A stretch of 64,000 nucleotides of DNA from positions 29,010 to 93,009 of the forward strand of contig JAFVFY010000082.1 in NCBI GenBank assembly GCA_017475265.1. The letters are read 5' to 3'. The position numbers were made by a program, and so were the translations under genes. This document shows positions 3,701-29,143 of the stretch, piece by piece (position 1 is the first letter of the stretch; each line of letters begins with the position of its first letter). The notes under the pieces are model-generated. The model did no database searches and had not been told where the DNA came from. It saw only the letters and a list, made by a program, of their open reading frames with translations. The stretch is from Prevotella sp. Its GTDB lineage: Bacteria > Bacteroidota > Bacteroidia > Bacteroidales > Bacteroidaceae.

Positions 3701-4088
3701 GGTGGGCGTTGCTCTCCATGGTGACGTTGAGCGTCTTCTGCCCCGTGTACTTAAAGCTCTGCTGCTTCATGCCGACGTAAGAGAACACGATGGTCAGGTT
3801 CTTCTCCTCGGGCACTTTCAGCGTGTAGTTACCGTTGAAGTCGGTGACGGTACCGCTGACGATACGGTTCTGGCTGTTCTGGAACGTCACATTAGCCCCG
3901 ATGATGGGTTCCTTCGCGCCGCCAAGCAGCTCCGTGACATTACCCGTCACGGTCTGGGCGTCCACGCCAAGGGCGACAAATAGAAAAGGAAGGAGCAACC
4001 CACCCCCAGCCCCTCCCGAAGGGAGGGGAGTCAAAATACTTTTGGCCCTACAGGAGATAGACCTTATTATCTTTATAATAGTATTCAT
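762..4088 (-). CDS. SusC/RagA-family TonB-linked outer-membrane transporter
   Basis: SusC proteins are TonB-dependent barrels that import glycans or peptides captured by a SusD lid. After the signal peptide there is a CarboxypepD_reg-like domain (from VTGNVTELLGG to LNVTME, about residues 45-125). A plug domain follows with RIRGTATLNSSADPLIVINGV and the SusC signature IEVLKDAASTAVYGTAGANGV. The rest is a long barrel ending in an aromatic residue (VSMGITVNF), as expected for BAM insertion. The length of about 1108 aa is normal. I chose the ATG at 4086-4088 (MNTIIKI); an ATG at 4109 adds seven residues. The signal peptide contains an in-frame palindromic repeat (TPLPSGGAGGG). It is co-directional with the SusD gene downstream and the fasciclin lipoprotein upstream. 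Substrate unknown. Confidence 0.93.
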   Translation of the reverse strand: MNTIIKIIRSISCRAKSILTPLPSGGAGGGLLLPFLFVALGVDAQTVTGNVTELLGGAKEPIIGANVTFQNSQNRIVSGTVTDFNGNYTLKVPEEKNLTIVFSYVGMKQQSFKYTGQKTLNVTMESNAHQIREVQVSGKKGGSRNDMGVTARQQSFATQKIDMTEIMAASPVTSIEEALQGQLGGVDILAAGDPGAKSTIRIRGTATLNSSADPLIVINGVPYNTSIDDSFDFNTASQEDFAQMLSLNPNDIESIEVLKDAASTAVYGTAGANGVLLITTKKGAMGKTNFTFSTKNSMKFEPKSMPMLSGNEYVAYMQDAIWNTANAQGLDGNSYLEYLFDKYEIGYQQDWRYFDEYNQDVDWLSYLTKNAFTTDNSFSMSGGGERATYRYSLSYLNEGGTTRGTGLQRLTTSLDIGYKFSEKLRVNAEYTYSDTKKDAPWTENSRAEAMRKMPNKSPYYIDDATGEMTGIYFTRQNAEEFQGAFNGSRNFHPIIMVEDSYRNLKTKEQKMTVRANYYATSWLRYTGYVSMKYNTQKTEAFLPQSATGVTTNNSYANQAMDAYSNNFSLQTENKLMVTKDWLDQKHQLVVTALWRTQQSRSSNNSSTRYNMASASIADPASGGGVLLSQGSGDSEVATLSGIGSVVYTLLDRYTINGTINYEGKSSLGKENRWGLFPSVGVSWQMADEKFMNWSDEWLTELKLRASYGTSGNAPSGTSPYVGTYSAIGYYMDGAAITTATMQLNKLKWETSKEINLGTDINLFDGRVNLTFDWYRKNTKDLLQKNVVVPEYMGYPSPQIKYWNSGKMRNEGWEFRIDANVIKTKDWNLSVNWNINRNINTIIELPENMSAEDPQVANGVYNTKILSGTSVGSFFGFRYLGVFHNLEDTYAKDADGNVMTDLQGNPLVMYNSNIRCYPGDAKYEDINHDGRIDKNDIVYLGNYNPVVSGGGGFTLKYKQWSMTVFLHYRLGQKIINQARMNAEAMYNRDNQSTAVLRRWRTEADVDTDIPRALYNYGLNYMGSDRFVEDCSFVRLKTLSLNYSFPKGVCKSLSVNSLSMFLTGYDLFTFSKYTGQDPEVTMPSKITDLAVDNSQTPRSRRVSMGITVNF
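3997..4031 (-). repeat. 35-bp G-rich palindromic element inside the SusC signal-peptide codons
   Basis: On the coding strand this reads ACTCCCCTCCC, TTC, GGGAGGGG and then CTGGGGGTGGGTT, with a perfect 8-bp stem. It is translated in frame as TPLPSGGAGGG inside the signal peptide. The mRNA carries four G runs (GGG, GGGG, GGGGG, GGG) separated by 1-2 nt. Confidence 0.88.
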
Positions 4089-4143
4089 GATATAATAATT
4101 ATATTGCATTTATATTGCATTTAGTAAGGATATTACATCTTTC

Positions 4144-4178
4144 ACTCCCCTCCCCTCGGGAGGGGCTGGGGGTGGGTT
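4144..4178 (+). repeat. 35-bp G-rich palindromic element between the fasciclin and SusC genes
   Basis: It differs from the 727-761 copy at only two positions. It lies 10 nt behind the stop codon of the fasciclin gene (4189-4191), and a partial TGGGTGGGTT repeat fills the gap. The C-rich strand is transcribed. Confidence 0.87.
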
Positions 4179-4188
4179 CTTGGGTGGG

Positions 4189-6666
4189 TTACAGTGCTTC
4201 GTCCAGGAAATAGACCACGCCGTCGCTGAAGATGAGGGGCAGGAAGTTGTAGGTCGATGACATGCGTATCTGCTGGCTCTTCTGCTGCGTCTGCAGGTCG
4301 GTGGTCTGGACGGAGAGGGCGGAGCCATCGTCATAGACGTTGAGGACGTAGCTCTTCGCCACGACGGGCACGTCGCCGCTGTCGTCCATCACTTGTAGCG
4401 TTTCCAGTCCGCCGAACTCCAGGTTGTCGGTGGTCTCGCCCCAGCCTAAGTAGGGATAGTTGGTGATGACGGCTGTTGAGAGGGGAACGAAGTAGCGCAC
4501 GAGGTACTGCTGCAGGGCCGTCTTGTCCGTGGCCTGAATCTTCGTGAAGAAGTCCTCGTCGGTGGCCTGCGAGCCTTCGCCGGCTACGACGCCGGGAATG
4601 CGACCCTCGGCGATGGCGCGGGCCAGGGCCTGCGTGGTGGGCACGAACTGTAGGCAGCTCTCCGTCATGAACGACACCTTGCCGGCGGAGAGGAAGCCTC
4701 CGGCCTGGAGCAGCGAATACCAGCCGTAAAACTCGGTGGTGTTGTCGCGGTTCTGGTCGCCGATGAGGGGATAGAAGGCTTCATTGTCCTCGTAGCTGCC
4801 ACGGAAGAGCAGGCTGTCATAGGCGTAGGCATGGCCGTTGGTCCAGCCGTTGATGTCGCCACGATAGGCTAACGGCTCGAAAGCAGCCCAGATGTCGTCC
4901 TCCGTAGCTAGGTTGGCCTGGTAGCGCAGGGTCTTCAGATACTGTATGCTGTTGGTGATCTTCCCGTCCTTCACGTACCAATAGACCTTCATCGGCGAGG
5001 TCTGCATGGTGGCATAGACGGCGGGGCGCGAGCCACTGGTCGGTAGCACGGTGTTGCCGTCGGTGGCCATCACGGCGTGGGCGTTGACGTAGCTCGTCAC
5101 CACGGCGCTCGACAGGGCGGTAGGCTCCTCCATGCCCACGGGCTGTGTCATGATGGTGGCCGGCGAGCCTTTCTGCACAGTGATCTGCGCCTCGCTGTTG
5201 GCCAGTTGGTCGTTGCTGGGATAGAGCATGATATACTGGATGGCATCGGCAGAGAACGTCTTGTCTAAGCCGGAGCCGTTGGCGGCGGTAGCGGAGAGCA
5301 TGGTGCCGAAGGTGCTGTACCGCTTGTATTGGTAGGCGGGGCCGGTGACGCTGTTGAACTGCGACGGAGGTGTAAGCACCGAGCAGCCGTAGAGCACGCC
5401 GTTGGAGCAGATGATGCGGTCGGCCTGGGGCACCTCGCCGGTGTTGAACTTGATGACGTTGTTGTCCGTATCGACAATCTTCCCGGCCTCAATCTCGTCG
5501 GGGAAGATCATCGACTGGTCCTTCTGTGCCGACCGCTCCTCGAAGATGCTGTGCAGCAGCAGCGTAGTCATCTGCGACGTAGGCACGTCGTCGATGCTCT
5601 TGTAGCCGCCCAAGGCCCAATAGTCGTCGAAGAAGTTCTGCATGGCCTGGTCAGTGGGGGCGAAGATGCTGTAGGCGCGGTGGCTGTTGGCCGAGAACTG
5701 CTTATAGTCGTCCACGGGCCACTCCGTAGCGATGCGCGGCAGGTCGCCGAAACTGATGGTGTGGAGGCCCACGGCGCGCTGCTCGTCGGTAGTGGCGAAG
5801 TCGTTGGTCAGCTCGGTCGACTTCTCGTAGCTCTTGTACTGGTTGTAGAAGGAGAGGAACTTGGTGAACTTCCCGGCATTGCGCAGCTCAGTGTAGATGG
5901 TCTCCAAAGGCCGCAGCACGCGGTCCACCTTATAGACGTAGCCGTTCTTGGCAATATTCTCGCGGCTGTCCACGTCGATGACGTTGGCGTTGGCCACCTG
6001 GAACGCGCCGTCGCCCGTCCAACCCGTTTCGGGGAAAAAGTAGCTGTAGTTGTCCTTCGCGTCGATGCCCTTCGTGCGGAACATCATGTGGGAGAACACG
6101 GGGAGGAAGCGGTCGGGGTGATAGACGAACACATCCTGGTAGGTGGAATCAACGGTGCCGTCGTCGAGCGTGGTAGTGACGAGGCTCTTCGCCTTCTCCA
6201 CGGCATCCTGCGAACGGGTGCGGAACTTATAGTAGAGCCCGGCCTTCACCAGCTTCTGCTCGTCGGTGGCGCCGTCGCCCTCCGTGGGGCGGAAGTTGAT
6301 GAGCTTCTCCTTGTCGTAGCTATAATATAATATGTGGAAGCCGATGAGCTTCTTCACCTCGTCTGCACTGAGCGAGCCGATGTCCTGCGTCTGATGGTTT
6401 TGCTGCAGGTATGCCGTCATCGCCTCGTCGTCGGGCGCCATGACGGTGAGGATGGCCTTGCCGTTGAGGATGGGCTTGTAGCCCGCCATGTCGGCTCCCT
6501 TGAGGAACTGCATGTATTTGCCGTCGGCCTCGAGCTTCTCGTATATCGAGCCGGCGATGTAGTCGGGCTCCTCGAAGTACTCGTCCATGTCGGAGCACGC
6601 CGATAACATCAACACCGAAAGCAGCAGACTACCTGCAACCCTCGTCGTGATTCTTGGTCTCTTCAT
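4189..6666 (-). CDS. Fasciclin (FAS1)-domain surface lipoprotein, SusC/SusD-linked
   Basis: An 825-aa lipoprotein with a signal peptide ending in LMLSAC, lipidated Cys24. FAS1 domains are adhesion or ligand-binding folds. One begins near residue 40 (SIYEKLEADGKYMQFLKGA, then ILTVMAPDDEAMTAYL). A second is recognisable by YSIFAPTDQAMQNFFDDYW followed by MTTLLLHSIFEE. The C-terminal half has no motif I recognise. It is first in the operon with SusC and SusD, so it is probably an accessory surface binding protein of that transport system, like the extra surface glycan-binding proteins of Sus-like loci. No enzyme gene of a polysaccharide-utilisation locus is visible here. Family assignment is firm; ligand and role are inferred. 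Confidence 0.88.
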   Translation of the reverse strand: MKRPRITTRVAGSLLLSVLMLSACSDMDEYFEEPDYIAGSIYEKLEADGKYMQFLKGADMAGYKPILNGKAILTVMAPDDEAMTAYLQQNHQTQDIGSLSADEVKKLIGFHILYYSYDKEKLINFRPTEGDGATDEQKLVKAGLYYKFRTRSQDAVEKAKSLVTTTLDDGTVDSTYQDVFVYHPDRFLPVFSHMMFRTKGIDAKDNYSYFFPETGWTGDGAFQVANANVIDVDSRENIAKNGYVYKVDRVLRPLETIYTELRNAGKFTKFLSFYNQYKSYEKSTELTNDFATTDEQRAVGLHTISFGDLPRIATEWPVDDYKQFSANSHRAYSIFAPTDQAMQNFFDDYWALGGYKSIDDVPTSQMTTLLLHSIFEERSAQKDQSMIFPDEIEAGKIVDTDNNVIKFNTGEVPQADRIICSNGVLYGCSVLTPPSQFNSVTGPAYQYKRYSTFGTMLSATAANGSGLDKTFSADAIQYIMLYPSNDQLANSEAQITVQKGSPATIMTQPVGMEEPTALSSAVVTSYVNAHAVMATDGNTVLPTSGSRPAVYATMQTSPMKVYWYVKDGKITNSIQYLKTLRYQANLATEDDIWAAFEPLAYRGDINGWTNGHAYAYDSLLFRGSYEDNEAFYPLIGDQNRDNTTEFYGWYSLLQAGGFLSAGKVSFMTESCLQFVPTTQALARAIAEGRIPGVVAGEGSQATDEDFFTKIQATDKTALQQYLVRYFVPLSTAVITNYPYLGWGETTDNLEFGGLETLQVMDDSGDVPVVAKSYVLNVYDDGSALSVQTTDLQTQQKSQQIRMSSTYNFLPLIFSDGVVYFLDEAL

Positions 6667-6882: not shown

Positions 6883-7071
6883 CTATTCTTCCCACAGGTC
6901 AAACCTTTGGGAGCGTGCTGGGGAAGAATTTCCACCAGAGGGATCGTCGTCCCACAAACCTCTCGACAGGGCTTCGTCGGTATGACCACTTTCAGAGGCA
7001 GGCAACATGAAGCAGTCCTCCATGACGTCGTTAATCATTTCAATGATGGGTGTAGTGTATTTCCTTTTCAT
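6883..7071 (-). CDS. 62-aa peptide of unknown function, last gene of the giant-protein operon
   Basis: It starts MKRKYTTPIIEMIND and ends SQRFDLWEE. It has no signal peptide of normal length. The N-terminal half (K-Y-x-x-P-x-I-x-x-I) is followed by a Gly/Ser/Asp-rich acidic tail holding two related blocks, GLWDDD and FDLWEE. From memory, short proteins of this plan are frequent in Prevotella genomes, but I know of no assigned function. The ATG is 5 nt behind the stop codon of the 352-aa gene, which argues for translational coupling. An in-frame upstream start at 7119 would overlap that gene and is less likely. The equivalent position behind the 354-aa paralogue holds a 22-bp repeat array instead. 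Confidence 0.6.
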   Translation of the reverse strand: MKRKYTTPIIEMINDVMEDCFMLPASESGHTDEALSRGLWDDDPSGGNSSPARSQRFDLWEE

Positions 7072-7076
7072 AGCTC

Positions 7077-8135
7077 TTATCTGATAATGATGATTTGACC
7101 TTGGGCATTCTTCTTCCACATCTTCTTGAGAGGTGAGGAAACTGCTTCCACATTGAGCCTACGTCCCTGAAGGTCATACCATTTACTATTTGACCATTTA
7201 CTATTTACGATTTCACTTATTGCGGTTGTAGTGGAGTCATCAATGATTATCCTTGCTCCACGTGAGCCATCGGAGAAGTCGGCGATGTAGGCGCGGTTGG
7301 CGGGAATCTCTGTGCCTGTGAAGAGCCAGAAGCCGAGCTCGTCCGTCGTTTTGGAATGGCCCAGGGTGAGCACGCTGTTGGCATCGACGGTCGTGGCTTC
7401 GGTCGTTCCCTTGAAGATTGAGGAGTGAGAAGTAAAGAGCGACGAATTCTGTTCAAGGGTCTCGGCGTCGATGACTGCCGAGAGCCATTCACAGGTGGTC
7501 CCGCCCTCACTCTGCTGCAACACTGGGGTGTCCTTTGGCAGTACACTGGCCTGGACCTCCTTCGTCACCAGCTCTCCGTCCTTGATGCCCGTGGCGTCCA
7601 AGAGGGTGATACCGTCGGGTACACGGGCATCGAAGGGCAGGCAGGTGGTGGCATAGCCCTCTGTAGAGAAAGTGGTGGTGACGGGGGCGGGTAGGTCAAT
7701 GATGTAGAAATTGCCCACTTCGCCTACCTCATCATTGTTCTTGTATTTGAGACCTTGGTCTACCTCAATGATGCGGCCTTCCCCAGATCCACCAAGCATC
7801 TCAGATGGGACATACACCTTGAAGTGCAACGCATCGCCTCTTGTGCTGCTGCTTCCCCACACGTCAATGATGAGTATGCCAGTGTAATCTCCCAAGTCGA
7901 AGGGCGTGTCCTTGCCACGCAGCTCGTCGTCATGGTAGACGGCCACCACCGCTCCGTCGCCAAGTATCTCGCCGTTCATCTTCACTTGAGCGTAGATGGT
8001 CATGTTGTCGGGATACTTGTACTTGTCCACCTCACCAAACGGGTCGGCGGTTTGGGCCATGAGCGATGCTGGCATGAAGCCAGCACCGATGGTCAGGAGG
8101 AGGGCGAGGGTCAGAAATGTTCTTTTATTCTTCAT
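7077..8135 (-). CDS. Secreted 352-aa partner of giant protein B, with Prevotella C-terminal tail
   Basis: It has a signal peptide ending near SLMAQ. The N-terminal module (YPDNMTIYAQVKMNGEILG, then VVAVYHDDELRGK) resembles a module repeated near the C-terminus of the giants (YPANMVLIAQVVADGQPVSG, then GVFA and ECRE). A second half contains TTTFSTEGYATTCLPFDARV. The C-terminus (KWYDLQGRRLN, then GQIIIIR) is the tail found on eight secreted proteins here. Its paralogue at 18516-19580 follows giant A in the same way. The gene starts 58 nt behind giant B, with a hairpin between. I do not know a named family; a surface or matrix structural role alongside the giant is inferred. Short heptanucleotide-type repeats are translated at VNSKWSNSKW and NSSLFTSHSS. 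Confidence 0.85.
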   Translation of the reverse strand: MKNKRTFLTLALLLTIGAGFMPASLMAQTADPFGEVDKYKYPDNMTIYAQVKMNGEILGDGAVVAVYHDDELRGKDTPFDLGDYTGILIIDVWGSSSTRGDALHFKVYVPSEMLGGSGEGRIIEVDQGLKYKNNDEVGEVGNFYIIDLPAPVTTTFSTEGYATTCLPFDARVPDGITLLDATGIKDGELVTKEVQASVLPKDTPVLQQSEGGTTCEWLSAVIDAETLEQNSSLFTSHSSIFKGTTEATTVDANSVLTLGHSKTTDELGFWLFTGTEIPANRAYIADFSDGSRGARIIIDDSTTTAISEIVNSKWSNSKWYDLQGRRLNVEAVSSPLKKMWKKNAQGQIIIIR

Positions 8136-8155
8136 CTTAATTGTTCTTTAGGAGT

Positions 8156-8180
8156 GGTCGCTACGCTACGCGCAGCGACC
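8156..8180 (-). other. Stem-loop between giant B and its 352-aa partner
   Basis: GGTCGCT and AGCGACC form a perfect 7-bp stem around an 11-nt GC-rich loop. It sits in the 58-nt gap between the two genes. No T tract follows, so it is more likely to set message stability or the expression ratio than to end transcription. Confidence 0.45.
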
Positions 8181-8193
8181 ATCTCGTTTCCAG

Positions 8194-17958
<9,765 letters not shown>

Positions 17959-18174
17959 AATTACAATGGTTTAATGATTAGACTTTGGTTTTAATTAAGT
18001 TTGAAATAAGTTTATAATGGCTTGTTGATGTATAAAAAGGTTAAGGTTTGCGGTTTGATGGCTGATAGGTGTGGATAGTTTTGTGTTTGTTTCATTTACT
18101 TTTCTATATGTCTCATTCGAGACCAACGGAGTACGTAAGGATTTAAGGTCGGTCACGTACCCTGTTTTACGATG

Positions 18175-18205
18175 CAAATATACACTTTTTTTCCCATTTC
18201 CGCAA
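18175..18205 (-). promoter_or_regulatory. Promoter of giant B
   Basis: On the minus strand TTG is followed by 20 nt and TATATTTG, the Bacteroidetes primary-sigma pattern. The expected start leaves a leader of about 210 nt. The element and its flanks (ATTGCGG, A-rich spacer, AAGTGTA, TTTGCATCG) match the giant A promoter at 29238-29268. Confidence 0.72.
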
Positions 18206-18259
18206 TATTTCAGATGATTTAACATATTGTTTAGGTTAAATTAACATATTGGCTTTGCT

Positions 18260-18512
18260 GAGCAAAGTGCGTGGGCTGGCTGATGTAAGTGCGTAGGTTA
18301 GATGATGTAAGTGCGTAGGTTAGATAATGCAAGTGCGCGGGTTAGATGAGCTACGTCAGCTGGTTAGATGAACAAACCCAGCACGTTTGTTCAGCAAACG
18401 CACTGGGTTTGTCCAAGCAAAAGAGCTGGTTTTGTTCAGCAAAAGCTATGGTTTTGTTCAACAAAAGCGCTGGGTTTGTTCAGCAAAAGCTATGGTTTTG
18501 TTCAACAAAAGC
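18260..18512 (+). repeat. 22-bp tandem repeat array between the 354-aa gene and giant B
   Basis: About 11.5 units with a strict 22-bp period, drifting in sequence from one end to the other. At the left end units read like GATGTAAGTGCGTAGGTTAG. At the right end they read TCAGCAAAAGCTATGGTTTT, and several contain the near-palindrome TTTTGTTCAACAAAA. It ends three bases from the stop codon of the 354-aa gene (18516-18518). The remaining intergenic DNA, 17959-18259, holds the leader and promoter of giant B. Confidence 0.9.
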
Positions 18513-18515
18513 ACA

Positions 18516-19580
18516 TCATCTGATGATGATGATTTGACCTTGGGCATTCTTCTTCCACATTCTCTTGAGGGGTGAGAGGGGAGAGGAATATGTTTCCGCA
18601 TTGAGCCTACGTCCCTGAAGATCATACCATTTGCTATTTGACCATTTACTATTTACGATTTCACTTATTCCGGTTGTGGTGGAGTCTTCAATGATGATCC
18701 TTGCCCCACGTGAGCCAGCGAGGAAGTCGGCGATGTAGGCGCGGTTGGCGGGAATCTCTGTGCCCGTGAAGAGCCAGAAGCCTATATCGCCCGTCTCTTT
18801 CGAGTGGCCGAGGGTGAGCACGCTGTTGGCCGTTACTCCCGTAGGCTCGGTAGTGCCCTTCAAGATAGAAGACTGCCCATTGTCCTTTGCCCATTGCTCC
18901 TTGGCTACATTCAGGTTTTCGTCATCGATGACGGCGGAGAGCCATTCATAGGTGGTCTCGCCATCCACCTTCAGCAAAACAGGGGTGTCCTTTGGCAGCA
19001 CACTGGCCTTGACCTCCTCCATCACCAGATCTCCGTCCTCGATGCCGGTGGCGTCATAGAGGGTGACACCGTCGGGTACACGGGCGTCGAAGGGCAGGCA
19101 GGTGGTGGCATAGCCCTCTGTGTAGAAGGTGGTGGTGACGGGGGCGGGGAGGTCGATGTAGTAAGGGTCGGTGACCTTGCCCACACGCTGGTTGGTGCTG
19201 AACGTAAGCCCTTGGTCTACCTCGATGACGCGTCCTTCAGTAAACACCTTGAAATGGAGTGGCTGTCCCTTGGTACTGCCGTAAACCGTCATCATCAGCA
19301 GGCTTGTGTAATCCTCATCATAGTCCTTGGGGCTAGACTTGCCGCGTAGCTCGTCGCCACAGAAGACGGCCACGACGGTCTCGTTGCCAAGCACCTCGTT
19401 ACTGACGGGTACCCATTGGCCATTGACCATGGTAACCATACGCACATAGCCCGTGATGTTCATGCTATTGTCGTATTGTCCTTTTTCCACATCGCCAAAG
19501 GGGTCTGCCGTCTGGGCTATGAGGCTGGCACTCCCCAGGAAGAGGAGTGCCAGCATACTATTGATTCTCTTAAACATCAT
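18516..19580 (-). CDS. Secreted 354-aa partner of giant protein A, with Prevotella C-terminal tail
   Basis: A paralogue of the 352-aa protein at 7077-8135, alike along its whole length. It has a signal peptide ending near SLIAQ, followed by TADPFGDVEKGQYDNSMNITG, which resembles the ADPFGEVDKYKYPDNM segment of the paralogue. The module with VVAVFCGDELRGK follows, then TTTFYTEGYATTCLPFDARV and the tail KWYDLQGRRLN to QGQIIIIR. The last part is nearly identical at DNA level in both copies. It starts 32 nt behind giant A, so the two are almost certainly co-transcribed. Two adjacent ATG codons (19580 and 19577) are possible starts. The stop codon lies next to the 22-bp array. Function unknown; a co-secreted partner of giant A is inferred from context and the shared module. 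Confidence 0.85.
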   Translation of the reverse strand: MMFKRINSMLALLFLGSASLIAQTADPFGDVEKGQYDNSMNITGYVRMVTMVNGQWVPVSNEVLGNETVVAVFCGDELRGKSSPKDYDEDYTSLLMMTVYGSTKGQPLHFKVFTEGRVIEVDQGLTFSTNQRVGKVTDPYYIDLPAPVTTTFYTEGYATTCLPFDARVPDGVTLYDATGIEDGDLVMEEVKASVLPKDTPVLLKVDGETTYEWLSAVIDDENLNVAKEQWAKDNGQSSILKGTTEPTGVTANSVLTLGHSKETGDIGFWLFTGTEIPANRAYIADFLAGSRGARIIIEDSTTTGISEIVNSKWSNSKWYDLQGRRLNAETYSSPLSPLKRMWKKNAQGQIIIIR

Positions 19581-19612
19581 ATCAATTTACGTATTACGTG
19601 TTACGAATTGAT

Positions 19613-22600
19613 TTACTTCACCTGCTTCTGTCCGTCCACGATGTAAACACCCTTACGCAATTTACGATTTTCGGATTCACGATTTACAATCTTGCGTCCC
19701 TGCAAATCGTACACCGCATCAGTATCAAATCGTGAATTGTCAATTTGTAAATCGCAAATGGATTTGATGCCGGTGGCGTTGGCAAGGTCGATGATGAACG
19801 GAACCTTCGGGGTACCGATGACGGCGTCGGTCTCGTAGGTGATTTGAGCGTTGAGCGTTGAGATTTGAGAGTTGCCGTCGCTGACGCGGAAGTTAAGTGT
19901 ACAAGTCTCGTCTCCAGGAATGGTGATGTAGATCATTCCACGCTCGTCAGTGACGGCGGCCTCACGGCACTCGTCGCCAGCAAAGACTCCAAGCTCGGCA
20001 CCGCTGACAGGCTGACCGTCAGCCACAACCTGGGCGATGAGCACCATGTTGGCGGGATAGTTGCGATAGTCAACGGGAGTAAACGTTGTGAGTTGAGCGT
20101 TGAGAGTTGAGAGTTGAGAGTTGAGGGTTGGCTGCGCCATGCGGGCTGCGGCACCAGTGGCGGCCTTGTTGGGATAGGTGAGGGTGTGGTCCACCTTAGC
20201 CTGAATCTTATATCCCTGTCCGGGAGTCAATTGCTTCAGGTTGCCCAGCCACTCATACTCATCGTAGTAGGCCACGCCATGCTGACCCTTTATGATTTCG
20301 CCATCCTCAGGCCCCATATTGGCCAGTGCCTCGTTGACGCTCATCACCGACAGACTGTTGTAGGCCACCCACGTCCATTTGCCGTTACCAGCAATGTTGA
20401 TGGATTCCTCGTCGCTCTTGACCTTATGGCCAGTGACGCAGAGTGTCAGATCCTCATTAGCCTGCACCGTATACATCTCAAGGTTGTTCATCTGCTCAAG
20501 GTCACCTATCCATTTCTTTCCAGTATATTCGCTATAGATGCCGTTGTTTTTCACCAGCTCCACCTTGCTGTCAGCCTTCGAGAACACGTTGGTCACGGTG
20601 AAGGGATTGGGTTTCACAGCGAGCGACATCCAGTTCCAGCCGTAGGCCAGGTCGATGTTCTGCTCCACTTCGTCGGTGGCATTGAGGATGATGGGATTCT
20701 TGTATGTACCCCACATCTGGTTTGTCACGAATGTAATACTCTCGCTCGTGGTCACCACAGGATATATCGTACCCGTGGAGGCCTCAAACACCTTGAAGGT
20801 CACAGCTTTCTCATTATCTTCATTATCACCATAGATGGTCATGGTGCAGAAGTAGCTGTCATAGCGGCTGTTGTACTCAGGATGAACCACGCCACGGCAC
20901 TCGTTGTTGATGAAAGCACCCACGATGTCATCCTCGTCACGACAGGGCACGTTGAGAATTTGCAGGTTTCCGACAAGGTTCATCGTCTCCTCATATTTTG
21001 CGGGGGTCACGGCCCAGTCGGGTTCCTCGGCCTTCACTTTCAGGTTGAGGGTCAGCGGCTCGCTGATGTTGTCATTGCCAGTGAGGTAGATGGTTTCCTC
21101 GTACTTGCCAGTGGGAACGCTCTCGGCTACGGTGAAGGTGATGGTCTTCGACAGCTGAGCCTTCAGTGTTCCGCTGGTGGCACTGGCAGTTAGCCATGAG
21201 GGCAGACCTGTGAGTGTCCAGTTCTCCGACGTACCACTCTCATTGGCGAAGGTGGCCTCGAAGGTAGCGGGTTCGCCGACCTGCTTCTCAAGCGTCACGT
21301 CGGTCTCGCCCTTCCACAGCAGACTGTTCTGACGCACGAAGGCCGTCCAGCTTGCAGCATTCGACTCGTTGCCGTTGAGGTCTTGCACGGCCCTCACGGT
21401 GAACTGCAACGTCGTACCCTCTAATCGGGCAGGTGTCTCGTTCAGCGTGATGATGATGCCACGCTCGTTGGCCACGTAGTTGTATTCCACGTTGGTGGCC
21501 TCGGGCTTCACCTTTAGGGCAGGAGCCTCGTCGGTGTAGTTGAGAGTGGAGGGTTGAGAGTTGAGAGTTGTCACCTCTGCGGTCAGACCGCTGCCTGTGA
21601 GATCCTCGTCATTGCTTACCGAGGTGATGAGTCCGTTGTTGGGGTCACGTGTCATCTTCTCGAAGGAGTAGTAGGCTGCCAGTCCGCTCTCGTCACCGAC
21701 AAGGCGCTGTGTGCGCTGGCTACTGAGCAGGTCACCGGTCATCGAAGCGTTCCAGATGCGGATTTCGTCGACCAAACCTTTGAAGAAGGTGCCGGCATCG
21801 CCTCGCTGCGAGCCCACATAGAGCGTTGCGCCCTCAAGAGCGGGCACTGCCGATGCCGAGAAGGTCTTCACGGCCTTGCCGTCGACGTAGGCCGTGGCGT
21901 TGCCGTTGCGCAGCACATTGAGTGCCAGGTGGTGCCAGGCGTTGTCGAGGACGTTGCTGCTGGTCAGCTCGGTGTCTGAGCCATTGGCCTTCATAGTGAG
22001 GCCGCCGTTGGCGTTGAAGCCGATGCCCACAGAATTAGTGTTGGCAGCGAACAGTGTGCTTGCTGCACTCTGGTCGGCCTTTGCACCCTTGAACCACATT
22101 TCCACGGCGTAGTCATCCGTTTGCGAGGGGCTGCAGGCAGAGATGTTCAGTTTCAGGGTCTTCGTGCCGTCGAGGGTGACAGCCTTGTTATCGTTGTTCA
22201 GATACCACGTGCTGGCAGGCATGGTGAGGTGGCGGCTGCGGGCATAGTCGCGAATTTCTGTGCCGTTGCCCTCGTCCATCTTCCAGTAGCCGATGAGGTT
22301 GGGCGTGGAAGGCTTCTTCGTGAAGTACATCTCGGCCTGTGCCTCCTGCATGGTGCGTGCCTTGTCCCAGAGGGTCAGCTCGTGGATGGCACCCTTGAAG
22401 TTCTGTCCCAGCGTGATGCTGCCAGAGCCGGCATAGTCGGCTACAGCCACGTAGGCAAACAGGTCCTTGGTGTCGTTGGCCGTTACGGCGCGTGCGTATA
22501 GGTGGCTGCTACCCTCATCATAGTTGTAGGAGAAGGTCAGGAATGTCCAGGTGTCCTTCTCAATGGCATTGGTAGAGACATAGTCATTGCCGCCAATGGA

Positions 22601-25600
22601 GGCCACAAGCTTGTCGTTAGCGTCAATGCTCAGTTTGAACTTCTCGTTGCCGTTGCCGTGGGTAAGGATGTCACCGGCTGCGGTCACACGTACCCACATA
22701 TCAGCCGAGAAGCTCTTCTTGGCCAAGTTGAAGCCGGCCTGTGTATAGGCGGCGCGATCAGTGCCCTGTGCCGACAGAGCCACGTCGTGCTGCAGCTCGT
22801 AGCCGTTGAGCACACCACTGACGATGATGTTGTTCTTCGTCAGCATCTCCTTCTGGATGTCCTCGTTGAAGGTCACGCTGATCTCGTCACCGCCGTTGAG
22901 CACGCCGTCGCTCGGGCTGGCAGCGCCGAAGAGCTGCGGACGCTTCAGGTCTTTCACCAGCGTCAGCACGTCGCTCTCAGCGGTCACCGTTTTGCCGGAG
23001 TAGATTGTCGAACTCTGTGCGCGGAATTGGTATGTACCGTCAGCCCATTTAGCTTCCCTCATGTCTATCGGCAGTTCTATGGCACCATTTTCGGGAAGCA
23101 GCTCTTGACTGTTGTTTGCGCGGACGCTCTCGCTCGGGATATAGCTCTGTAGCAGGCTCCATGTCTGCTTGCCCGGCTCCATGTACTGTAGGTCGACGCT
23201 CTGCAGACCGGCAAAGTAGCGATTGAAGCCCGTCACGCGGAATGTCACACCATCGTTCACGTTGGCTGTGTTCACCGTCGTCTTGTCCATGGCCATGATG
23301 ACTGGCGTGCTGGCGGGCACGAACTCGGCCGAGATGGTCACCTCGCTCCTGAGGTCGTCCTGACAAGTGCTGGTCAGGGCCAGTGTGATGTCGGCATACT
23401 TCGTAATGGCGGCGTTGCCCTGCTCTAAGGTGAGAATCATCTTCACCGTCTCGCCGGCAGGCACTAACACGGTGCGTCCGTTCTCGATAGGACCGGTGGG
23501 CAGACTCAGCCTGGCGCCGAGCGGGTTGGTGCCGTCAACAGGAATGAGGTTGAAGTAGCAGTCGGTCTTCGTAATCGAGTTGTTCCTCAGCAGCAGCTCA
23601 AACTGAGCCTGGCCGCCAGTGGGAATGCCCGTCAGCATGTTGTTGTCGCAGGCTATTTCCGGCTGCTCTATCTGCATGGTGGCCTCCGACAGTACTTTCG
23701 ATTCACCCTCTTCTTTGTAGTATTTCGTCAGCACCTCACCCTCATACGGACATGAGCTTTGTCCGCCTAAGGTGCGGAATATCGGGCCATGGGTTCCCGC
23801 AGCCGGGAAGATGTCCATCGAGAACGAATCGTCGGCACCGCTGTCGGCCAGCGTGTAGCTGAAGGTTGCCGAATTCTCCGTCTCGTCAGTTACGGTTGAG
23901 CCATTTTCTCTTATCAGGTTGTAAGTGGTCTCGACATCACCACCCATTCCATTCCATGTAAATCCGAGGTCAGTAAAGAAATTGTATGTCCAGTTGGTCG
24001 TCTTTGAGTAGGTTGTGGCAAAACCTGAAGAACGCGTTGTCGACTCATTGATTTCCGAACCGCCGCCAAACGACACATTCTTCTTTCCGTGGCCTTCATT
24101 GTACGTCTTTAACTTAGTTTCCTCATTGAGAGCGATGGCATCCTGCCAAGCCTTAATCTCTGAATTATAGTATTGCACCTTGTCGAGCTGTGTGGTTTCG
24201 TTGCCCACCTTCACAATGAGAACCTTGTAGGTGCCCGGCTCGCCGAATTGTTCATCCACCGGCCCCCATTCCGTGACATACATGGTCGCGCCACTCTGGT
24301 TGACGAATGTCGACGTATCAGCAACCTGGGTGAGCAGGTCGTTGCGCAACGTCTTCAGGTTGGGAATGATAACATTCTCAATCTGGTATTCCGTATAGAT
24401 AAAGTTTGTATTAAACTTTGTGCCAATGGTGATGACATCATCGACGTCCACCTCCAGCGTGCCGTTGGCTTTGGACATCAGTCCCACCGATCGTGCGTTG
24501 CCGAAAAGCAGGTTCTGGCTCTGGCCTATATAGAGGTCGCCGTCGGCACCAATAAATTCGGGGTCGCTGCTCGTGCTGATGGCACGGGTCACCTCAAGTG
24601 TCGTGACGGTTGAGCCGATAGTGTCTTTCTGCTCAGTACGGTCGAAACCATTGGACACATCGGCAATAAAATCATATTCGTTCTGATTGGAACAGTATAA
24701 CGTACCAGTATTCGTCACAACATCAGCTCCCGCATGGAGGTTAACCATGAAATTGTTTGCTTCAGCAAATGTCCTGATGGTGTCTCTGGTGTGGATGGTC
24801 ACTGAACCAGTTTCCCAGGTGGCAAACGACGAGTCGCCATACGGGTCGTGCAGAATCATCTCCACTTTGCTCGGGCCCTCCGTGACGTAGTTAGTACCTG
24901 AGGGCAGGTCGCCGAAGACGATGCCGGTGAGTCCCTGCCAGCTGTAGTCGCCGGCGCCATTGTTGTAGGTCATGTTCAAAGTACGGGTGAAGTCGCCCTG
25001 GATATTGGGCAGACCAGCCTTCCACGAGTACGTTGCTTTGCCAACCGAGTCGAGCAGCAGTTGGTTGCTCTTCAGATCGACCACCTTTCCGGCATTTTCC
25101 GCGGCATCGGCTCTATACACCTCCTGGCTTGAGCTCATCGCATTGCTGATGGTCACCACAACATCCTTCAGCGGCACCTTCGATGTATGGCCATTATCAT
25201 AGTTCGTGTAAGTCTCATAGCCCTCCAGGTCGAAGTTGTAAGTACCCAACTCCGAGAAGATAGGATAGTCGAAGTTGTAGGTCACAGTACCGTTGTTCAC
25301 ACTATAGAGGTTAGCCTTGAGCTTCTTGCCGGTGCTCAGGTCATTGTACTCAGCTTTTGCGTCGCCAAATGCTCCTACGGGTGCATCTTTCTGCGAGACG
25401 TTCAGCACGGGCTGGGTGTGCAGGGTCTGCTGGAATGCAGCCACATAGTCGAAATAGCGGAAGCCGCCGTTCTCCGTCGGGACGCTGTCCTGCAGCACGG
25501 TCGTTGCGTCGCTGGCATCGATGCGTGGCAGTTGCTCAGAGTTGAACACATAGTTGGCTTGTCCTTCGGTGCTCTCCATCACTACCGACAGCACCTTGTA

Positions 25601-28600
25601 GTCCAATGGTGGCAGCATGACACCAAACTCGCCCGTCTCGCCATCGGTGGTGATAACGACCTTCTTGGCATCGTTGTCGTATGCTCCGCCCGTGCGGTAG
25701 GCCACGCCGGGTTTTGTCATGCCCTCAATAGTGGGCACGTCGGTATTGGTGGCTACAGGCCGGAAGCCTGTGCTCACCAGCCCATCCGTTTCCTCCTCGG
25801 CATTCATCATATACCTTGTGTCGGGTATCTCAAGGGTGATGACGGCCTTGCCGATGTTGTTCTCGCTAAGACCGAAGCCTAAAGGCTTGTTACCCTCGAT
25901 GGCACCACCCACCACGCGTCCGGCTACCGGCACCAGCGTGTTGTCGATGAAACGCAGGCCCGACAACGGGTTCTTGAACTCCATCGTGACCTCGTTCAGG
26001 CCCGTCGGGTCTTCGGGGATGCGACCGTTGTTCACAAAGGTGTGGCCGTCCCTGACGGCAGAGATATAGTGCTTTCCGATGGGCACGTCGATGACGAACT
26101 CACCGTCCTGGTTGGTCATCACCGCCTCGTTGTCGCGCGCCACAGCACGACCGTCCACATAGATTTGCACGCTGTCAACCGGGATATTGGTGCCGGCGTA
26201 GATGATGGTGCCACTCACCTCGAAGGAACTGACATCGGTGAAATCGACGCTGTTGTGTACCACCGACGAAGTGCTGATGAAGCGGCTCTGCTTCTGGGGA
26301 GAGAACTCATGGCTGTTGAGCGTCGGAATGATATTGAAGTTCGTACCCTCGCCGCTGAACGGCACTCCCTGGATGATGTAGTTGCCATCGATGTCGGTCT
26401 TGGCCTTTAGCTTCAGTTCATCAGGCGTGAACGTATCGCTCTCGGCGTTGTTGCCCACCTCGCCATGATGCTGGTGATAGACGGTGAGGGTGCGCGAATA
26501 GTCGAAGAACTTACGTTTCAGCCCCTCGTCGAAGGTCCAGTAGGTCTCTAAGCCCGCCTCGTTGCCCACGAGCAGATGGTCGTAGTTCTCCATGACCTCG
26601 TCTTCGGTGAGGCACTTCGTCCACAGACGGAACTCATCGGCATAGCCCTGGTAATAGCCCAGTGATAACTGTTTGGCGCCAGCGAGGCTCAGGGTGCCGT
26701 CCATCGTCAGCGTTTCCATCTTCGTCACCGCCATGCCCGCAGCGTCGAAGGATATCAGGTAGCCTGTCAGCGTGCCAGCCTTGCGCGTCAGCGCGAAGTG
26801 GTTATACTGTCCGGCGGTCAGTCGGAGATTGTTGAAGGTCAGGGTACTCTCACCGTTGACCAGCGTCAGCTTGCCATTGGCGTCCATGCCCACATAGCAG
26901 GTCTCGCCGTTCAGACGCACCATTTTGGTCTCGGTCAGCTCACTGGGATTCAGCCACAGTTGAATGCTGAAGTCGCCGTTGGAGAACTTGTCGGCGGCGT
27001 ATGCATCGTTGGGGTAAGTCCACTTCACCGAGCCGGCAATGTTGGTGAAGTGTATGGAGCGGTACTGGCTTCCGCTCTCGGCCGACGAACCGGTCTTCTG
27101 TGCAATCACCTGTACGCCTTCCACCGAGCTGCCCGACGAGCCGTAGGTGATGCGACCGCTCACGGTGCCCGTGGTCTTGGCAAAGCCAATGTCGGCTATG
27201 TCGTTGGTGATTTCCGTACCGTCTGCACATTTGTCAATCACCGTCACGCGGTAGTCGTAATAGACGCCCGGCAGCGGCGTGTCGTCGTCGTAGGCCAGAT
27301 TTTCGTCCTTGCTCGACATGCGGGTGAGCTGGGTCCATGCCTCGTTTTCAATCTCGGCGGTGCGGCGTTCCACGACGTAGGTCTTGGCATCGGTGGAGCC
27401 TTGCAGGTCGACGCTCCACGCCAGTTTCACCTTGCCCGGATGGTTGCCCTTCGTGGCATTGAGGGAATAGAAGAGTGTGCCGTTGCCGATGGCGCGCTTG
27501 GTGAACACCGCCGTGTCGGCCAATAACTCCGTGTCATTGACGACCCCCTGTATACGGTAGGTGTGGGGGTCGCAGGCGTTCAGCGGCTCCTCAACGTATG
27601 GGACACCATTCTCGTCAATGCCATCCTGGCGGTTGTTGTGCTGATTGGTAGTGCGGTGTATCCACTTGAATACACCCTGCATGTCCTCGGGCGTGATGGT
27701 GTAGATGGGCGTTGTCTCGTTGTCAACGTAGATGCGGAACTGGTGGCCCCAGCCCTCGGGAAGTTGGTCAGAGGTCCAGGTGAACACGATGCTGTCGGAA
27801 TAGCTCCTCGCTTCTGCATTGTCAACGGGCACCTTGCGCGTGGTGTTCACCTTATTAGCATTCTCCGCCCTTGTGGTTGATTTCAGGCTTTTCACCTTCG
27901 TATCTTTGGGCCAGTGCCTCCATACATAATAGATTTCATACTCCAAGTCAGTCTCGTTGGGGAAGTCCTTGTCGATATAGGTGTATGTGCCTGTGTCCGG
28001 GTTGTAATTAAGGTTGGTATATCCTCCCTCAGTTACTCGCTGATACACCGAATCGACTAAGACACCGTTGCGGTAGATCATCCACCGGGTGTCCCAATCG
28101 CCAATGGAATAATTCGTGTTGTCACCCTTCCACGTCAACTTCACCTGGTTGTTCAACTGTATGAACTCCGTATTCTCGATGACGGCTTTAGGGAAGGGGG
28201 AGAACGTTAATGTAGAGGCCATTTTATTATAGTACGACGTTGAATTTTTGTTGTCCCTGTCGTTATCGTGCGTGAACTCATGGTAAGGCGTAATCGTGAA
28301 TTTTGTCCGGAAATCCATGCCAATATCCTTCAAGTTGAAAGTGTATGAACCGTTGGCATATTTGTTTGGGTCCTTGAATCCGATTGCCCTACTCCAGCCA
28401 CCATTAATCTGAGTGCAGATATGTGTCTCGCCGTCGGTATTGCGTGAAGTTCCTTCGAACTTGTAGGGAACGGTTATCGTGCTGTCGGGGGAAATGCTCC
28501 ACTCGGTGTTCCACGAAATAGTGCGGACATTGAAGGTATAGGGCGTTGCAATACTGTAGCCATCCTTTGAGATGAAGTGATTGTCTCTGCCATCTTCCTT

Positions 28601-29143
28601 GCACCAGTTGCCAGACCACTTAAGCTTGATATCACAGTTGCGCCACTGTAGGGGCAGATACCAGCGCACTTTGCGATGGTAGTACGTTCCCACTGTGTAT
28701 TCCGTCGTCGTTGTGGTACTGCCATACAAGTCGCACCCTGTAATCTTATTAGAGGCAGTAGGTACGAAGTTTCTGTTGCACTTGATGTTGATAATCGTCT
28801 GGTAGCTGCTCCCGCCGTTCTTACTGGCAGAGATAGTCAGGCCACTGTTGGCATCCATGAAGCCCTCTAAATAGCCCATGTAATGGAAGCCGAAGCCCAC
28901 ACTGAACTCGATATACGGACTGTTGCCGTCGTTGTTTCGATTGTAGGTGAGGTCGGCCATCATAAATCTGTACAAGAAGCCCGTGCCGTCGACATCTGAT
29001 CCTACCACGGCCCCGGCCCTTTGCGGCACTAAGAGCATCATAGCACACAACAGCATGGCCAAAGCCTGCAGCGGACGGCCATGATGGGAAACCGACAGCG
29101 GCACCCGCCACCATCGCTCCAATTGTTTTGTAGTCTTTTCCAT
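19613..29143 (-). CDS. Giant secreted multidomain protein A (3176 aa), LamG and Ig-like domains
   Basis: This protein parallels giant B domain by domain. It has a long signal region (from MEKTTKQLERWW to QRAGA) and an all-beta N-terminus. LamG domain 1 is at about 704-860 (FSIQLWLNPSEL, ETYWTFDEGLK). The middle region has THGPIFRTLGGQSSCPYEGE. A Big_5-type Ig domain lies near 2078 (PSDGVLNGGDEISVTFNE), and two LamG domains at about 2131-2290 and 2311-2495 (GYWKMDEGNG between them). A BACON-like segment (WTLTGLPSWLTASATSG), two partner-like modules (one with GVFAGDECREAAV) and the tail VYDLQGRKI to YIVDGQKQVK complete it. The last 200 or so coding bases are almost identical to giant B. No enzyme motif is seen. 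It heads the duplicated operon under its own promoter. A very large cell-surface or matrix adhesin is the best inference. Confidence 0.9.
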   Translation of the reverse strand: MEKTTKQLERWWRVPLSVSHHGRPLQALAMLLCAMMLLVPQRAGAVVGSDVDGTGFLYRFMMADLTYNRNNDGNSPYIEFSVGFGFHYMGYLEGFMDANSGLTISASKNGGSSYQTIINIKCNRNFVPTASNKITGCDLYGSTTTTTEYTVGTYYHRKVRWYLPLQWRNCDIKLKWSGNWCKEDGRDNHFISKDGYSIATPYTFNVRTISWNTEWSISPDSTITVPYKFEGTSRNTDGETHICTQINGGWSRAIGFKDPNKYANGSYTFNLKDIGMDFRTKFTITPYHEFTHDNDRDNKNSTSYYNKMASTLTFSPFPKAVIENTEFIQLNNQVKLTWKGDNTNYSIGDWDTRWMIYRNGVLVDSVYQRVTEGGYTNLNYNPDTGTYTYIDKDFPNETDLEYEIYYVWRHWPKDTKVKSLKSTTRAENANKVNTTRKVPVDNAEARSYSDSIVFTWTSDQLPEGWGHQFRIYVDNETTPIYTITPEDMQGVFKWIHRTTNQHNNRQDGIDENGVPYVEEPLNACDPHTYRIQGVVNDTELLADTAVFTKRAIGNGTLFYSLNATKGNHPGKVKLAWSVDLQGSTDAKTYVVERRTAEIENEAWTQLTRMSSKDENLAYDDDTPLPGVYYDYRVTVIDKCADGTEITNDIADIGFAKTTGTVSGRITYGSSGSSVEGVQVIAQKTGSSAESGSQYRSIHFTNIAGSVKWTYPNDAYAADKFSNGDFSIQLWLNPSELTETKMVRLNGETCYVGMDANGKLTLVNGESTLTFNNLRLTAGQYNHFALTRKAGTLTGYLISFDAAGMAVTKMETLTMDGTLSLAGAKQLSLGYYQGYADEFRLWTKCLTEDEVMENYDHLLVGNEAGLETYWTFDEGLKRKFFDYSRTLTVYHQHHGEVGNNAESDTFTPDELKLKAKTDIDGNYIIQGVPFSGEGTNFNIIPTLNSHEFSPQKQSRFISTSSVVHNSVDFTDVSSFEVSGTIIYAGTNIPVDSVQIYVDGRAVARDNEAVMTNQDGEFVIDVPIGKHYISAVRDGHTFVNNGRIPEDPTGLNEVTMEFKNPLSGLRFIDNTLVPVAGRVVGGAIEGNKPLGFGLSENNIGKAVITLEIPDTRYMMNAEEETDGLVSTGFRPVATNTDVPTIEGMTKPGVAYRTGGAYDNDAKKVVITTDGETGEFGVMLPPLDYKVLSVVMESTEGQANYVFNSEQLPRIDASDATTVLQDSVPTENGGFRYFDYVAAFQQTLHTQPVLNVSQKDAPVGAFGDAKAEYNDLSTGKKLKANLYSVNNGTVTYNFDYPIFSELGTYNFDLEGYETYTNYDNGHTSKVPLKDVVVTISNAMSSSQEVYRADAAENAGKVVDLKSNQLLLDSVGKATYSWKAGLPNIQGDFTRTLNMTYNNGAGDYSWQGLTGIVFGDLPSGTNYVTEGPSKVEMILHDPYGDSSFATWETGSVTIHTRDTIRTFAEANNFMVNLHAGADVVTNTGTLYCSNQNEYDFIADVSNGFDRTEQKDTIGSTVTTLEVTRAISTSSDPEFIGADGDLYIGQSQNLLFGNARSVGLMSKANGTLEVDVDDVITIGTKFNTNFIYTEYQIENVIIPNLKTLRNDLLTQVADTSTFVNQSGATMYVTEWGPVDEQFGEPGTYKVLIVKVGNETTQLDKVQYYNSEIKAWQDAIALNEETKLKTYNEGHGKKNVSFGGGSEINESTTRSSGFATTYSKTTNWTYNFFTDLGFTWNGMGGDVETTYNLIRENGSTVTDETENSATFSYTLADSGADDSFSMDIFPAAGTHGPIFRTLGGQSSCPYEGEVLTKYYKEEGESKVLSEATMQIEQPEIACDNNMLTGIPTGGQAQFELLLRNNSITKTDCYFNLIPVDGTNPLGARLSLPTGPIENGRTVLVPAGETVKMILTLEQGNAAITKYADITLALTSTCQDDLRSEVTISAEFVPASTPVIMAMDKTTVNTANVNDGVTFRVTGFNRYFAGLQSVDLQYMEPGKQTWSLLQSYIPSESVRANNSQELLPENGAIELPIDMREAKWADGTYQFRAQSSTIYSGKTVTAESDVLTLVKDLKRPQLFGAASPSDGVLNGGDEISVTFNEDIQKEMLTKNNIIVSGVLNGYELQHDVALSAQGTDRAAYTQAGFNLAKKSFSADMWVRVTAAGDILTHGNGNEKFKLSIDANDKLVASIGGNDYVSTNAIEKDTWTFLTFSYNYDEGSSHLYARAVTANDTKDLFAYVAVADYAGSGSITLGQNFKGAIHELTLWDKARTMQEAQAEMYFTKKPSTPNLIGYWKMDEGNGTEIRDYARSRHLTMPASTWYLNNDNKAVTLDGTKTLKLNISACSPSQTDDYAVEMWFKGAKADQSAASTLFAANTNSVGIGFNANGGLTMKANGSDTELTSSNVLDNAWHHLALNVLRNGNATAYVDGKAVKTFSASAVPALEGATLYVGSQRGDAGTFFKGLVDEIRIWNASMTGDLLSSQRTQRLVGDESGLAAYYSFEKMTRDPNNGLITSVSNDEDLTGSGLTAEVTTLNSQPSTLNYTDEAPALKVKPEATNVEYNYVANERGIIITLNETPARLEGTTLQFTVRAVQDLNGNESNAASWTAFVRQNSLLWKGETDVTLEKQVGEPATFEATFANESGTSENWTLTGLPSWLTASATSGTLKAQLSKTITFTVAESVPTGKYEETIYLTGNDNISEPLTLNLKVKAEEPDWAVTPAKYEETMNLVGNLQILNVPCRDEDDIVGAFINNECRGVVHPEYNSRYDSYFCTMTIYGDNEDNEKAVTFKVFEASTGTIYPVVTTSESITFVTNQMWGTYKNPIILNATDEVEQNIDLAYGWNWMSLAVKPNPFTVTNVFSKADSKVELVKNNGIYSEYTGKKWIGDLEQMNNLEMYTVQANEDLTLCVTGHKVKSDEESINIAGNGKWTWVAYNSLSVMSVNEALANMGPEDGEIIKGQHGVAYYDEYEWLGNLKQLTPGQGYKIQAKVDHTLTYPNKAATGAAARMAQPTLNSQLSTLNAQLTTFTPVDYRNYPANMVLIAQVVADGQPVSGAELGVFAGDECREAAVTDERGMIYITIPGDETCTLNFRVSDGNSQISTLNAQITYETDAVIGTPKVPFIIDLANATGIKSICDLQIDNSRFDTDAVYDLQGRKIVNRESENRKLRKGVYIVDGQKQVK
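20085..20126 (+). repeat. Heptanucleotide array (GTTGAGN) inside giant A
   Basis: Six consecutive 7-bp units (GTTGTGA, GTTGAGC, three GTTGAGA, GTTGAGG). On the coding strand they give SQLSTLNAQLTT before FTPVDYRNYP, exactly where giant B carries its own five-unit array. A second short tract of the same type is at 21538-21566. Confidence 0.8.

What the first reader, a model, noticed from the sequence alone, without database searches (positions are those of the whole stretch)
6883..29143. Tandemly duplicated operon encoding two giant secreted proteins, each with a small co-secreted partner
Giant A (3176 aa) plus a 354-aa protein is followed on the same strand by giant B (3254 aa) plus a 352-aa protein and a 62-aa peptide. 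Domain order is the same in both giants: beta-rich N-terminus, LamG, long middle region, Big_5-type Ig, two LamG, BACON-like, partner-like modules, tail. Over 22 kb is devoted to it. I know of no named system with this layout; it could be a surface fibre, matrix scaffold or prey/host adhesin pair. The system-level role is inference.
Basis: partly seen in the sequence, partly recalled or inferred. Interest (0 to 1): 0.8.

Follow-up and report, generated by a model that had tools for sequence, protein, structure and literature searches.

The report
Paired giant T9SS surface proteins, Bacteroidota
A Prevotella-like bacterium carries, side by side, two pairs of a giant and a small secreted protein built around one shared small domain, and similar pairs occur in other branches of its phylum without a family name in the libraries searched.

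Summary
In detail: window 6883-29143 (minus strand) encodes giant A (3176 aa), partner a (354), giant B (3254), partner b (352) and a 62-aa peptide. It is not a recent duplication: A and B sit in different clades, each nearer to giants of other species; only their C-terminal ends are homogenised. The genome holds eight such giants, members of an unnamed family spread through Bacteroidota whose core has no match above cut-off in Pfam or NCBIfam and none among PDB sequences. Giants are very likely type IX (T9SS) cargo: SprA is present, 21 of 67 tails match the T9SS sorting model, distant members carry it above cut-off. Giant and partner share a beta-sandwich module (N-module), twice near the giant's C-terminus, once in the partner. 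In ten genomes 74 of 79 N-modules lie in these giants or their neighbours. Best reading: a co-exported two-component surface adhesin in which N-modules join giant to partner and the partner adds its own anchor. Joining and adhesion are inferred; 25 of 58 Prevotellaceae giants lack an adjacent partner.

The parts
19613..29143 (-). Giant A, 3176 aa: signal peptide, variable N-terminal ~480 aa, LamG flanked by CarboxypepD_reg-like segments, conserved core, two LamG, BACON-like, N-module, two WNW segments, second N-module, short YDLQGRK tail
   Evidence: ORF, translation, Pfam (BACON and CarboxypepD_reg below cut-off), alignment; segment borders by eye
18516..19580 (-). Partner a, 354 aa: signal peptide ending AQ, N-module (aa ~26-147), CLPF module, YDLQGRR tail
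   Evidence: AlphaFold2 pLDDT 85.5
8194..17958 (-). Giant B, 3254 aa, same architecture as A
7077..8135 (-). Partner b, 352 aa, same layout as partner a (about 70% identical)
6883..7071 (-). 62-aa peptide directly after partner b; recurs after the partner in L104 and L087
23264..26266 (-). Conserved core of giant A (aa 960-1960) used for family searches and structure prediction
11914..15078 (-). Conserved core of giant B (aa 961-2015)
24575..24826 (-). Long beta-hairpin 1 of giant A (aa ~1440-1523), Ser/Thr-rich, amphipathic tip
23846..24055 (-). Long beta-hairpin 2 of giant A (aa ~1697-1766)
20675..21031 (-). N-module 1 of giant A
   Evidence: G000:C118:49684-50040, converted by the window offset
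19784..20083 (-). N-module 2 of giant A
   Evidence: G000:C118:48793-49092
19146..19511 (-). N-module of partner a
   Evidence: G000:C118:48155-48520
9283..9648 (-). N-module 1 of giant B
   Evidence: G000:C118:38292-38657
8362..8691 (-). N-module 2 of giant B
   Evidence: G000:C118:37371-37700
7689..8051 (-). N-module of partner b
   Evidence: G000:C118:36698-37060

Best explanation
Two units of one two-component, T9SS-exported surface adhesin system. Each giant crosses the inner membrane by Sec and the outer membrane by T9SS, using its C-terminal tail. It forms a long chain of Ig-like beads around a conserved core, with LamG domains as probable glycan binders and a variable N-terminal end as the likely specificity tip. 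The small partner is made with it, exported alongside it, and carries the same beta-sandwich N-module that the giant carries twice near its C-terminus. These modules most likely dock giant and partner to each other on the cell surface, so that the partner's own end (short T9SS-like tail here; lipid, dockerin, full T9SS tail, or type-B tail with PorP/SprF elsewhere) fixes or extends the giant. Shown by sequence: architecture, family, linkage, export signals in relatives. Inferred: that the short tail of A and B works in T9SS, docking, anchoring, and adhesion to plant fibre, host or other cells.
For: T9SS: SprA in the genome; 21 of 67 giant tails match TIGR04183 at E<=0.01; Por_Secre_tail above cut-off in giants L150, L153, L156 and L202 and in partners L179, L202 and L203. 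Linkage: an N-module gene within 500 bp downstream of 33 of 58 Prevotellaceae giants, 5 of 8 N-module giants in L150-L160, 12 of 21 in L170-L189, and both plasmid records found, Flammeovirga kamogawensis and Aureibacter tunicatorum. Specificity: 74 of 79 N-modules in ten genomes are in core giants or neighbours. Anchors: CHU_C type-B tail followed by PorP_SprF in L180, L181, L188 and L189, PorP_SprF also after the partner in L184; Dockerin_1 in 4 of the 27 partners aligned. Shared evolution: partner N-module distances track the giant's N-modules (Mantel r 0.74 and 0.77) better than its core (0.47) in 34 Prevotellaceae pairs. Print: type-B proteins may anchor by binding their PorP-like proteins (PMC9143113 abstract); [quoted passage not shown]
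Against: 25 of 58 Prevotellaceae giants lack an adjacent N-module gene; so do 9 of 21 in L170-L189, among them all eight of G634, G810 and G417, so the partner is not always needed. 19 of 130 giant-less genomes of the genus have N-modules. Partner N-modules are no more identical to their own giant than to others. In 17 pairs of other Bacteroidota the partner tracks the core (0.85) as well as N-module 1 (0.83), so co-divergence there may be plain phylogeny. A and B match no T9SS tail model (one search does not say which of its 67 members match); L203's giant tail is below cut-off. SprA is in 190 of 200 genus genomes, so its presence says little. No docking was modelled and no ligand tested. One orphan N-module+dockerin gene (G000:C83) and one N-module lipoprotein in an unrelated locus (L197) exist.
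Confidence: 0.5

Rival explanations
1. The giant is a membrane-active or pore-forming surface protein: the two long Ser/Thr-rich amphipathic beta-hairpins of the core insert into a target membrane, LamG domains and the N-terminus pick the target, and the partner is a holder.
For: AlphaFold2 gives two hairpins with strands of 30-34 residues. Ser+Thr is 30% and 29% there against 18% in the whole core and Pro 0.5% and 0.1% against 4%. Hydrophobic/polar alternation exceeds residue shuffles (p<0.05) in 31 of 50 (hairpin 1) and 18 of 50 (hairpin 2) cores, against 6 of 225 control tests. Motifs flanking hairpin 1 and following hairpin 2 are invariant in the 12 rows of A5.
Against: Only 2 of the 7 outgroup hairpin-1 segments that could be cut (of 12) reach p<0.05. 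Tips are low-confidence (pLDDT blocks 32-61). Membrane-attack-complex entries are listed among fold matches (6h04_A and 6h03_A, 8b0f_A) but at TM about 0.09 or rmsd over 20, alongside many alpha-2-macroglobulin and complement chains, so they reflect Ig-like arrays. Paired hairpins could simply form a soluble stalk.
Confidence: 0.12
2. No physical pairing: giant and partner are independent T9SS cargoes sharing a domain used in export or surface attachment, and the gene order reflects co-regulation only.
For: Giants without an adjacent partner are common. N-module 2 lies next to the export tail in giants. Identity of partner and own-giant N-modules is not raised.
Against: A general export module should be spread over many T9SS cargoes, yet 74 of 79 N-modules in ten genomes are in core giants or their neighbours and four of the other five are in a second large-protein+small-partner arrangement.
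Confidence: 0.25
3. Gliding or motility adhesin of the SprB type rather than a static adhesin.
For: Partner with type-B tail and a PorP/SprF gene next door in several lineages, the layout reported for SprB and adjacent sprF (PMC9143113 passage).
Against: The genome has one PorP/SprF match, on contig C90 and not in the window's contig, and partners a and b show no type-B tail (partner a). Prevotella is non-motile (recalled).
Confidence: 0.08

Closest known systems
SprB/SprF of Flavobacterium johnsoniae (type-B T9SS adhesin with PorP-like anchor)
   Same: Very large T9SS-exported surface protein (SprB facts from PMC9143113 abstract and recall); in several relatives the N-module partner has a type-B CHU_C tail and a PorP_SprF gene next to it
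   Different: In the giants scanned whose tail is recognisable the type-A model scores best; different core, LamG domains, and a separate partner sharing the giant's N-module. SprB itself was not compared by sequence
'LamG-like jellyroll fold domain-containing protein' of Flammeovirga kamogawensis, WP_144077269.1
   Same: Same family: core, two N-modules, LamG, Por_Secre_tail
   Different: The annotation names only the LamG domain; core, partner and pairing are unnamed
Ig-like/transthyretin-like sandwich domains (TTR-52, teneurin-3, SpaE pilin)
Dockerin-bearing proteins of cellulosomes
   Same: Some partners end in Dockerin_1 (4 of 27)
   Different: No cohesin above cut-off in the proteins scanned; best 18.2 bits against 24.1 in L200

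Membership tests
T9SS cargo | C-terminal sorting domain (TIGR04183 / Por_Secre_tail / CHU_C) | tested here: inconclusive
   No match in A, B or a; 21 of 67 family tails match TIGR04183 at E<=0.01; several distant giants and partners above cut-off
T9SS cargo | T9SS translocon in the genome | tested here: met
   SprA 2541 bits; weak evidence, 190 of 200 genus genomes have it
T9SS cargo | Export lost in a T9SS mutant | not testable with these tools
   needs bench work
SprB-type gliding adhesin | Type-B tail on the giant with adjacent PorP/SprF | tested here: not met
   No CHU_C in A or B; only PorP/SprF match of the genome is on another contig
SprB-type gliding adhesin | Needed for gliding | not testable with these tools
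   needs bench work
Beta-barrel pore-forming proteins | Amphipathic transmembrane beta-hairpins | tested here: inconclusive
   alternation in many Prevotellaceae cores, in 2 of 7 outgroup segments
Beta-barrel pore-forming proteins | Fold match to a known pore-forming family | tested here: inconclusive
   only Ig-array matches incl. complement chains; hairpin region barely covered
Cellulosome | Dockerin on one part and cohesin on another | tested here: inconclusive
   dockerin in some partners; cohesin below cut-off in L200, not elsewhere searched
Phage tail fibre | Core present in phage genomes | tested here: not met
   no match of core B in 50,697 phage records at E 1e-5
Phage tail fibre | Phage structural genes around the locus | not tested
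   no phage library was run on the window's neighbours; a Collar-domain gene precedes the giant in some distant relatives

The most novel reading that the evidence does not exclude
A phylum-wide class of giant T9SS proteins whose conserved core holds two membrane-inserting beta-hairpins: cell-bound, glycan-targeted pore-formers or contact weapons, held by a partner that docks through a dedicated pairing domain.
Probability: 0.1. Interest if true: 0.9.

Novelty: new variant of a known kind. Interest (0 to 1): 0.62.

Why it matters
One genome spends roughly 80 kb on eight such giants, and 70 of 200 same-genus genomes carry the core. Giving the core and the N-module a family name would turn scattered 'LamG-like' annotations into one testable two-gene system in Bacteroidota. 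It would also pose a sharp question: does a dedicated pairing domain tie T9SS giants to interchangeable anchors?

Tried and rejected
Rejected: recent tandem duplication of A-a into B-b. No support: phage origin of the core (no phage record). Tried: solved relatives of A or of the core by sequence (none) and by fold (single Ig-like domains or loose Ig arrays, TM about 0.1; membrane-attack-complex, alpha-2-macroglobulin, ciliary, pilin and HAP2 chains among the rows; no list row covers the hairpins clearly). Tried: an AraC-type regulator as a fixed part; a strict motif found 2 of 45 giants with one upstream, a looser one 10 of 45. Tried: cohesin for dockerin-bearing partners (below cut-off). Tried: SprA as a phylogenetic profile; 190 of 200 genomes have it, so no information; 3 of the 70 giant-bearing genomes lack it, all 61-68% complete. 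Tried: gene conversion between giant and partner N-modules (not seen). Partner a in plasmids: no match. Paper searches on LamG, giant, T9SS, Prevotella, PorP/SprF, tail collar and ixotrophy: no listed title or abstract start describes this system; that covers only the open PMC library. Caveats on counts: the 34 rows include one giant followed by a giant (L134), so 33; nine of 67 had under 700 bp left and no N-module in it and were set aside. Hairpin 1 could be cut from only 7 of 12 outgroups. Of the 19 giant-less genomes with N-modules I looked at three: G058 (core-less pair), G169 (giants cut by contig ends), G130 (lipoprotein in an unrelated locus); 16 were not looked at.
Full report
What is there. 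Spacing suggests two units, A-a (32 bp) and B-b-peptide (58 and 5 bp), separated by 557 bp with a terminator-like stem after a. Both partners have ...AQ followed by TADPFG at the end of the signal peptide, which fits the Bacteroidetes Q-rule (PMC10653852, start of abstract in the listing).

Not a recent duplication. A and B align over 3,098 residues at 49.5% amino-acid identity, but the last ~200 residues are 77-86% identical and the partners' last ~60 residues 88-94%; the third genomic copy (C42) shows no comparable rise. This is local homogenisation. In a tree of 101 giants A's nearest relative is L063 (path 0.40) and B's is L124 (0.44), with A-B at 2.41 (FastTree, local support only, several long branches). 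Some other arrays do hold close pairs (L054/L055, L134, L137; paths 0.34-0.40).

A family, not a curiosity. The window's own genome (4.75 Mb, 135 contigs, 99.1% complete) holds eight giants with open frames of 3,080-3,550 aa on C118 (two), C42, C40 (two), C110, C20 and C133. A scan of named genome contigs with the core reported 449 relatives; the best 80 gave 77 loci. By title, 25 of the 77 name a ruminant host or organ and 37 more bear RUG or RUI labels, which I recall as rumen MAGs; three are isolates by title (Prevotella sp. 885, Prevotella sp. P3-122, Prevotellamassilia timonensis). Of 55 ORFs complete at both ends, 50 are 3,095-3,365 aa. The core is found in 70 of 200 same-genus genomes, 18 of 395 across the phylum with the Prevotella profile, some by weak partial matches, and 30 of 395 in the class with a broader profile. 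In 12 rows from across the phylum the core keeps motifs around 'LRDPPG', 'GDVFIG..N', 'NISF..G' and 'GTPVF...SSCPWE'. Pfam and NCBIfam give nothing above cut-off in A or B beyond LamG, and nothing above cut-off in the core (Pfam; weak CarboxypepD_reg at its start); no PDB chain matches by sequence.

Export. SprA is in the genome (2541 bits). 21 of 67 giant tails match the T9SS type A model at E<=0.01 (65 locus tails plus A and B). Distant giants carry Por_Secre_tail above cut-off (L150, L153, L156; L202), L203 below. That the short YDLQGRK tail of A and B works in T9SS is inference.

The partner. Of 67 Prevotellaceae giants with a complete 3' end, 33 are followed within 500 bp by a same-strand gene with the N-module, often with a 4-bp overlap, 25 are not, and 9 had too little DNA to tell. 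In the window's genome I count 4 of 8 (A, B, C42, C133) with a partner downstream, one (C40) with an N-module gene upstream instead, and C110 with a short overlapping frame that may be the giant's own end. In other Bacteroidota: 5 of 8 N-module giants in L150-L160, and 0 of 4 giants there in which no N-module was detected; 12 of 21 in L170-L189, where the nine without are all eight of G634, G810 and G417 plus L178. The two plasmid records found by core, Flammeovirga kamogawensis and Aureibacter tunicatorum, both have one: annotated 'T9SS type A sorting domain-containing protein', 2 and 47 bp after the giant, with N-modules and Por_Secre_tail above cut-off. The second module of partners a and b (CLPF module) is not specific: partner a matches 42 of 100 relatives, mostly through that part, inside other large proteins.

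Is the N-module private to the system? In ten genomes 79 N-modules were found at E<=1e-5; 74 lie in core giants (whole, or judged to be cut by a contig end, G034:C25) or in genes beside them, one of these next but one (G034:C39). The other five are two further pairs, a large core-less protein with a C-terminal N-module plus a small N-module+dockerin protein (G000:C52, G034:C68), and one orphan (G000:C83). Two more core-less pairs appeared in L196 and L200; L197 is an N-module lipoprotein in an unrelated locus; L198 and L199 are giants cut by contig ends. Genus-wide, 69 of 70 giant-bearing genomes have N-modules against 19 of 130 without giants (related genomes, so the Fisher p is not a clean probability). 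The profile was built from this system, so divergent copies elsewhere would be missed.

Partner anchors differ. Full T9SS tails (L179, L202, L203), Dockerin_1 (4 of 27 aligned partners), predicted lipoproteins (L156, L168, L169, and L178, where it lies upstream; by eye, weak N-module scores in L168), or cadherin repeats with a CHU_C type-B tail followed by a PorP_SprF gene (L181, L188, L189; L180 without cadherins; in L184 only the PorP_SprF gene was scanned). Type-B proteins are suggested to be held by PorP-like proteins (PMC9143113, abstract and one passage) and commonly have a porP/sprF-like gene directly downstream (PMC12618676, passages). So the constant part is the N-module and the variable part is the anchor. 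That is why I favour docking, but it is inference.

Co-divergence. In 34 Prevotellaceae pairs the partner's N-module distances correlate with the giant's N-modules (0.74, 0.77) more than with its core (0.47); in 17 other pairs the core correlates equally (0.85 against 0.83 and 0.67). Shared movement of neighbouring DNA could produce the first result.

Verdict. A real, unnamed two-component surface system of Bacteroidota, very likely T9SS-exported; here two old paralogues side by side. New variant of a known kind (large T9SS surface proteins); the pairing domain and the core are the new parts.

Noticed in passing
L150:1327-2202, L202:7705-8598, also L151, L152, L153, L156, L170, L178: In distant relatives the giant is preceded by a gene with an 'IQGVLRD'-like N-terminus; Collar (PF07484) is above cut-off in L150 and L202, below in L151, not scanned in the rest. 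It may be a conserved third operon member outside phages.
   Followed up: partly
window 762-6666 and 3-683: Fasciclin-domain lipoprotein followed by SusC-like and SusD-like genes, same strand, directly downstream.
   Followed up: partly
L191, L193, L196, L200: Second set of large core-less proteins with a C-terminal N-module plus a small N-module+dockerin gene; in L191, L196 and L200 List_Bact repeat proteins follow.
   Followed up: partly
L066, L072, L076, L080, L083, L084, L091, L136: An AraC-like tail motif marks a ~600-650 aa gene 375-630 bp upstream of the giant in these loci (10 of 45 giants in all).
   Followed up: partly
L065: A contig filed as Acetatifactor carries a giant core 65% identical to A's; probably a misbinned Bacteroidales contig.
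   Followed up: no
L202, L203: In Flammeovirga kamogawensis and Aureibacter tunicatorum the system lies on replicons of about 0.6 Mb recorded as plasmids.
   Followed up: no
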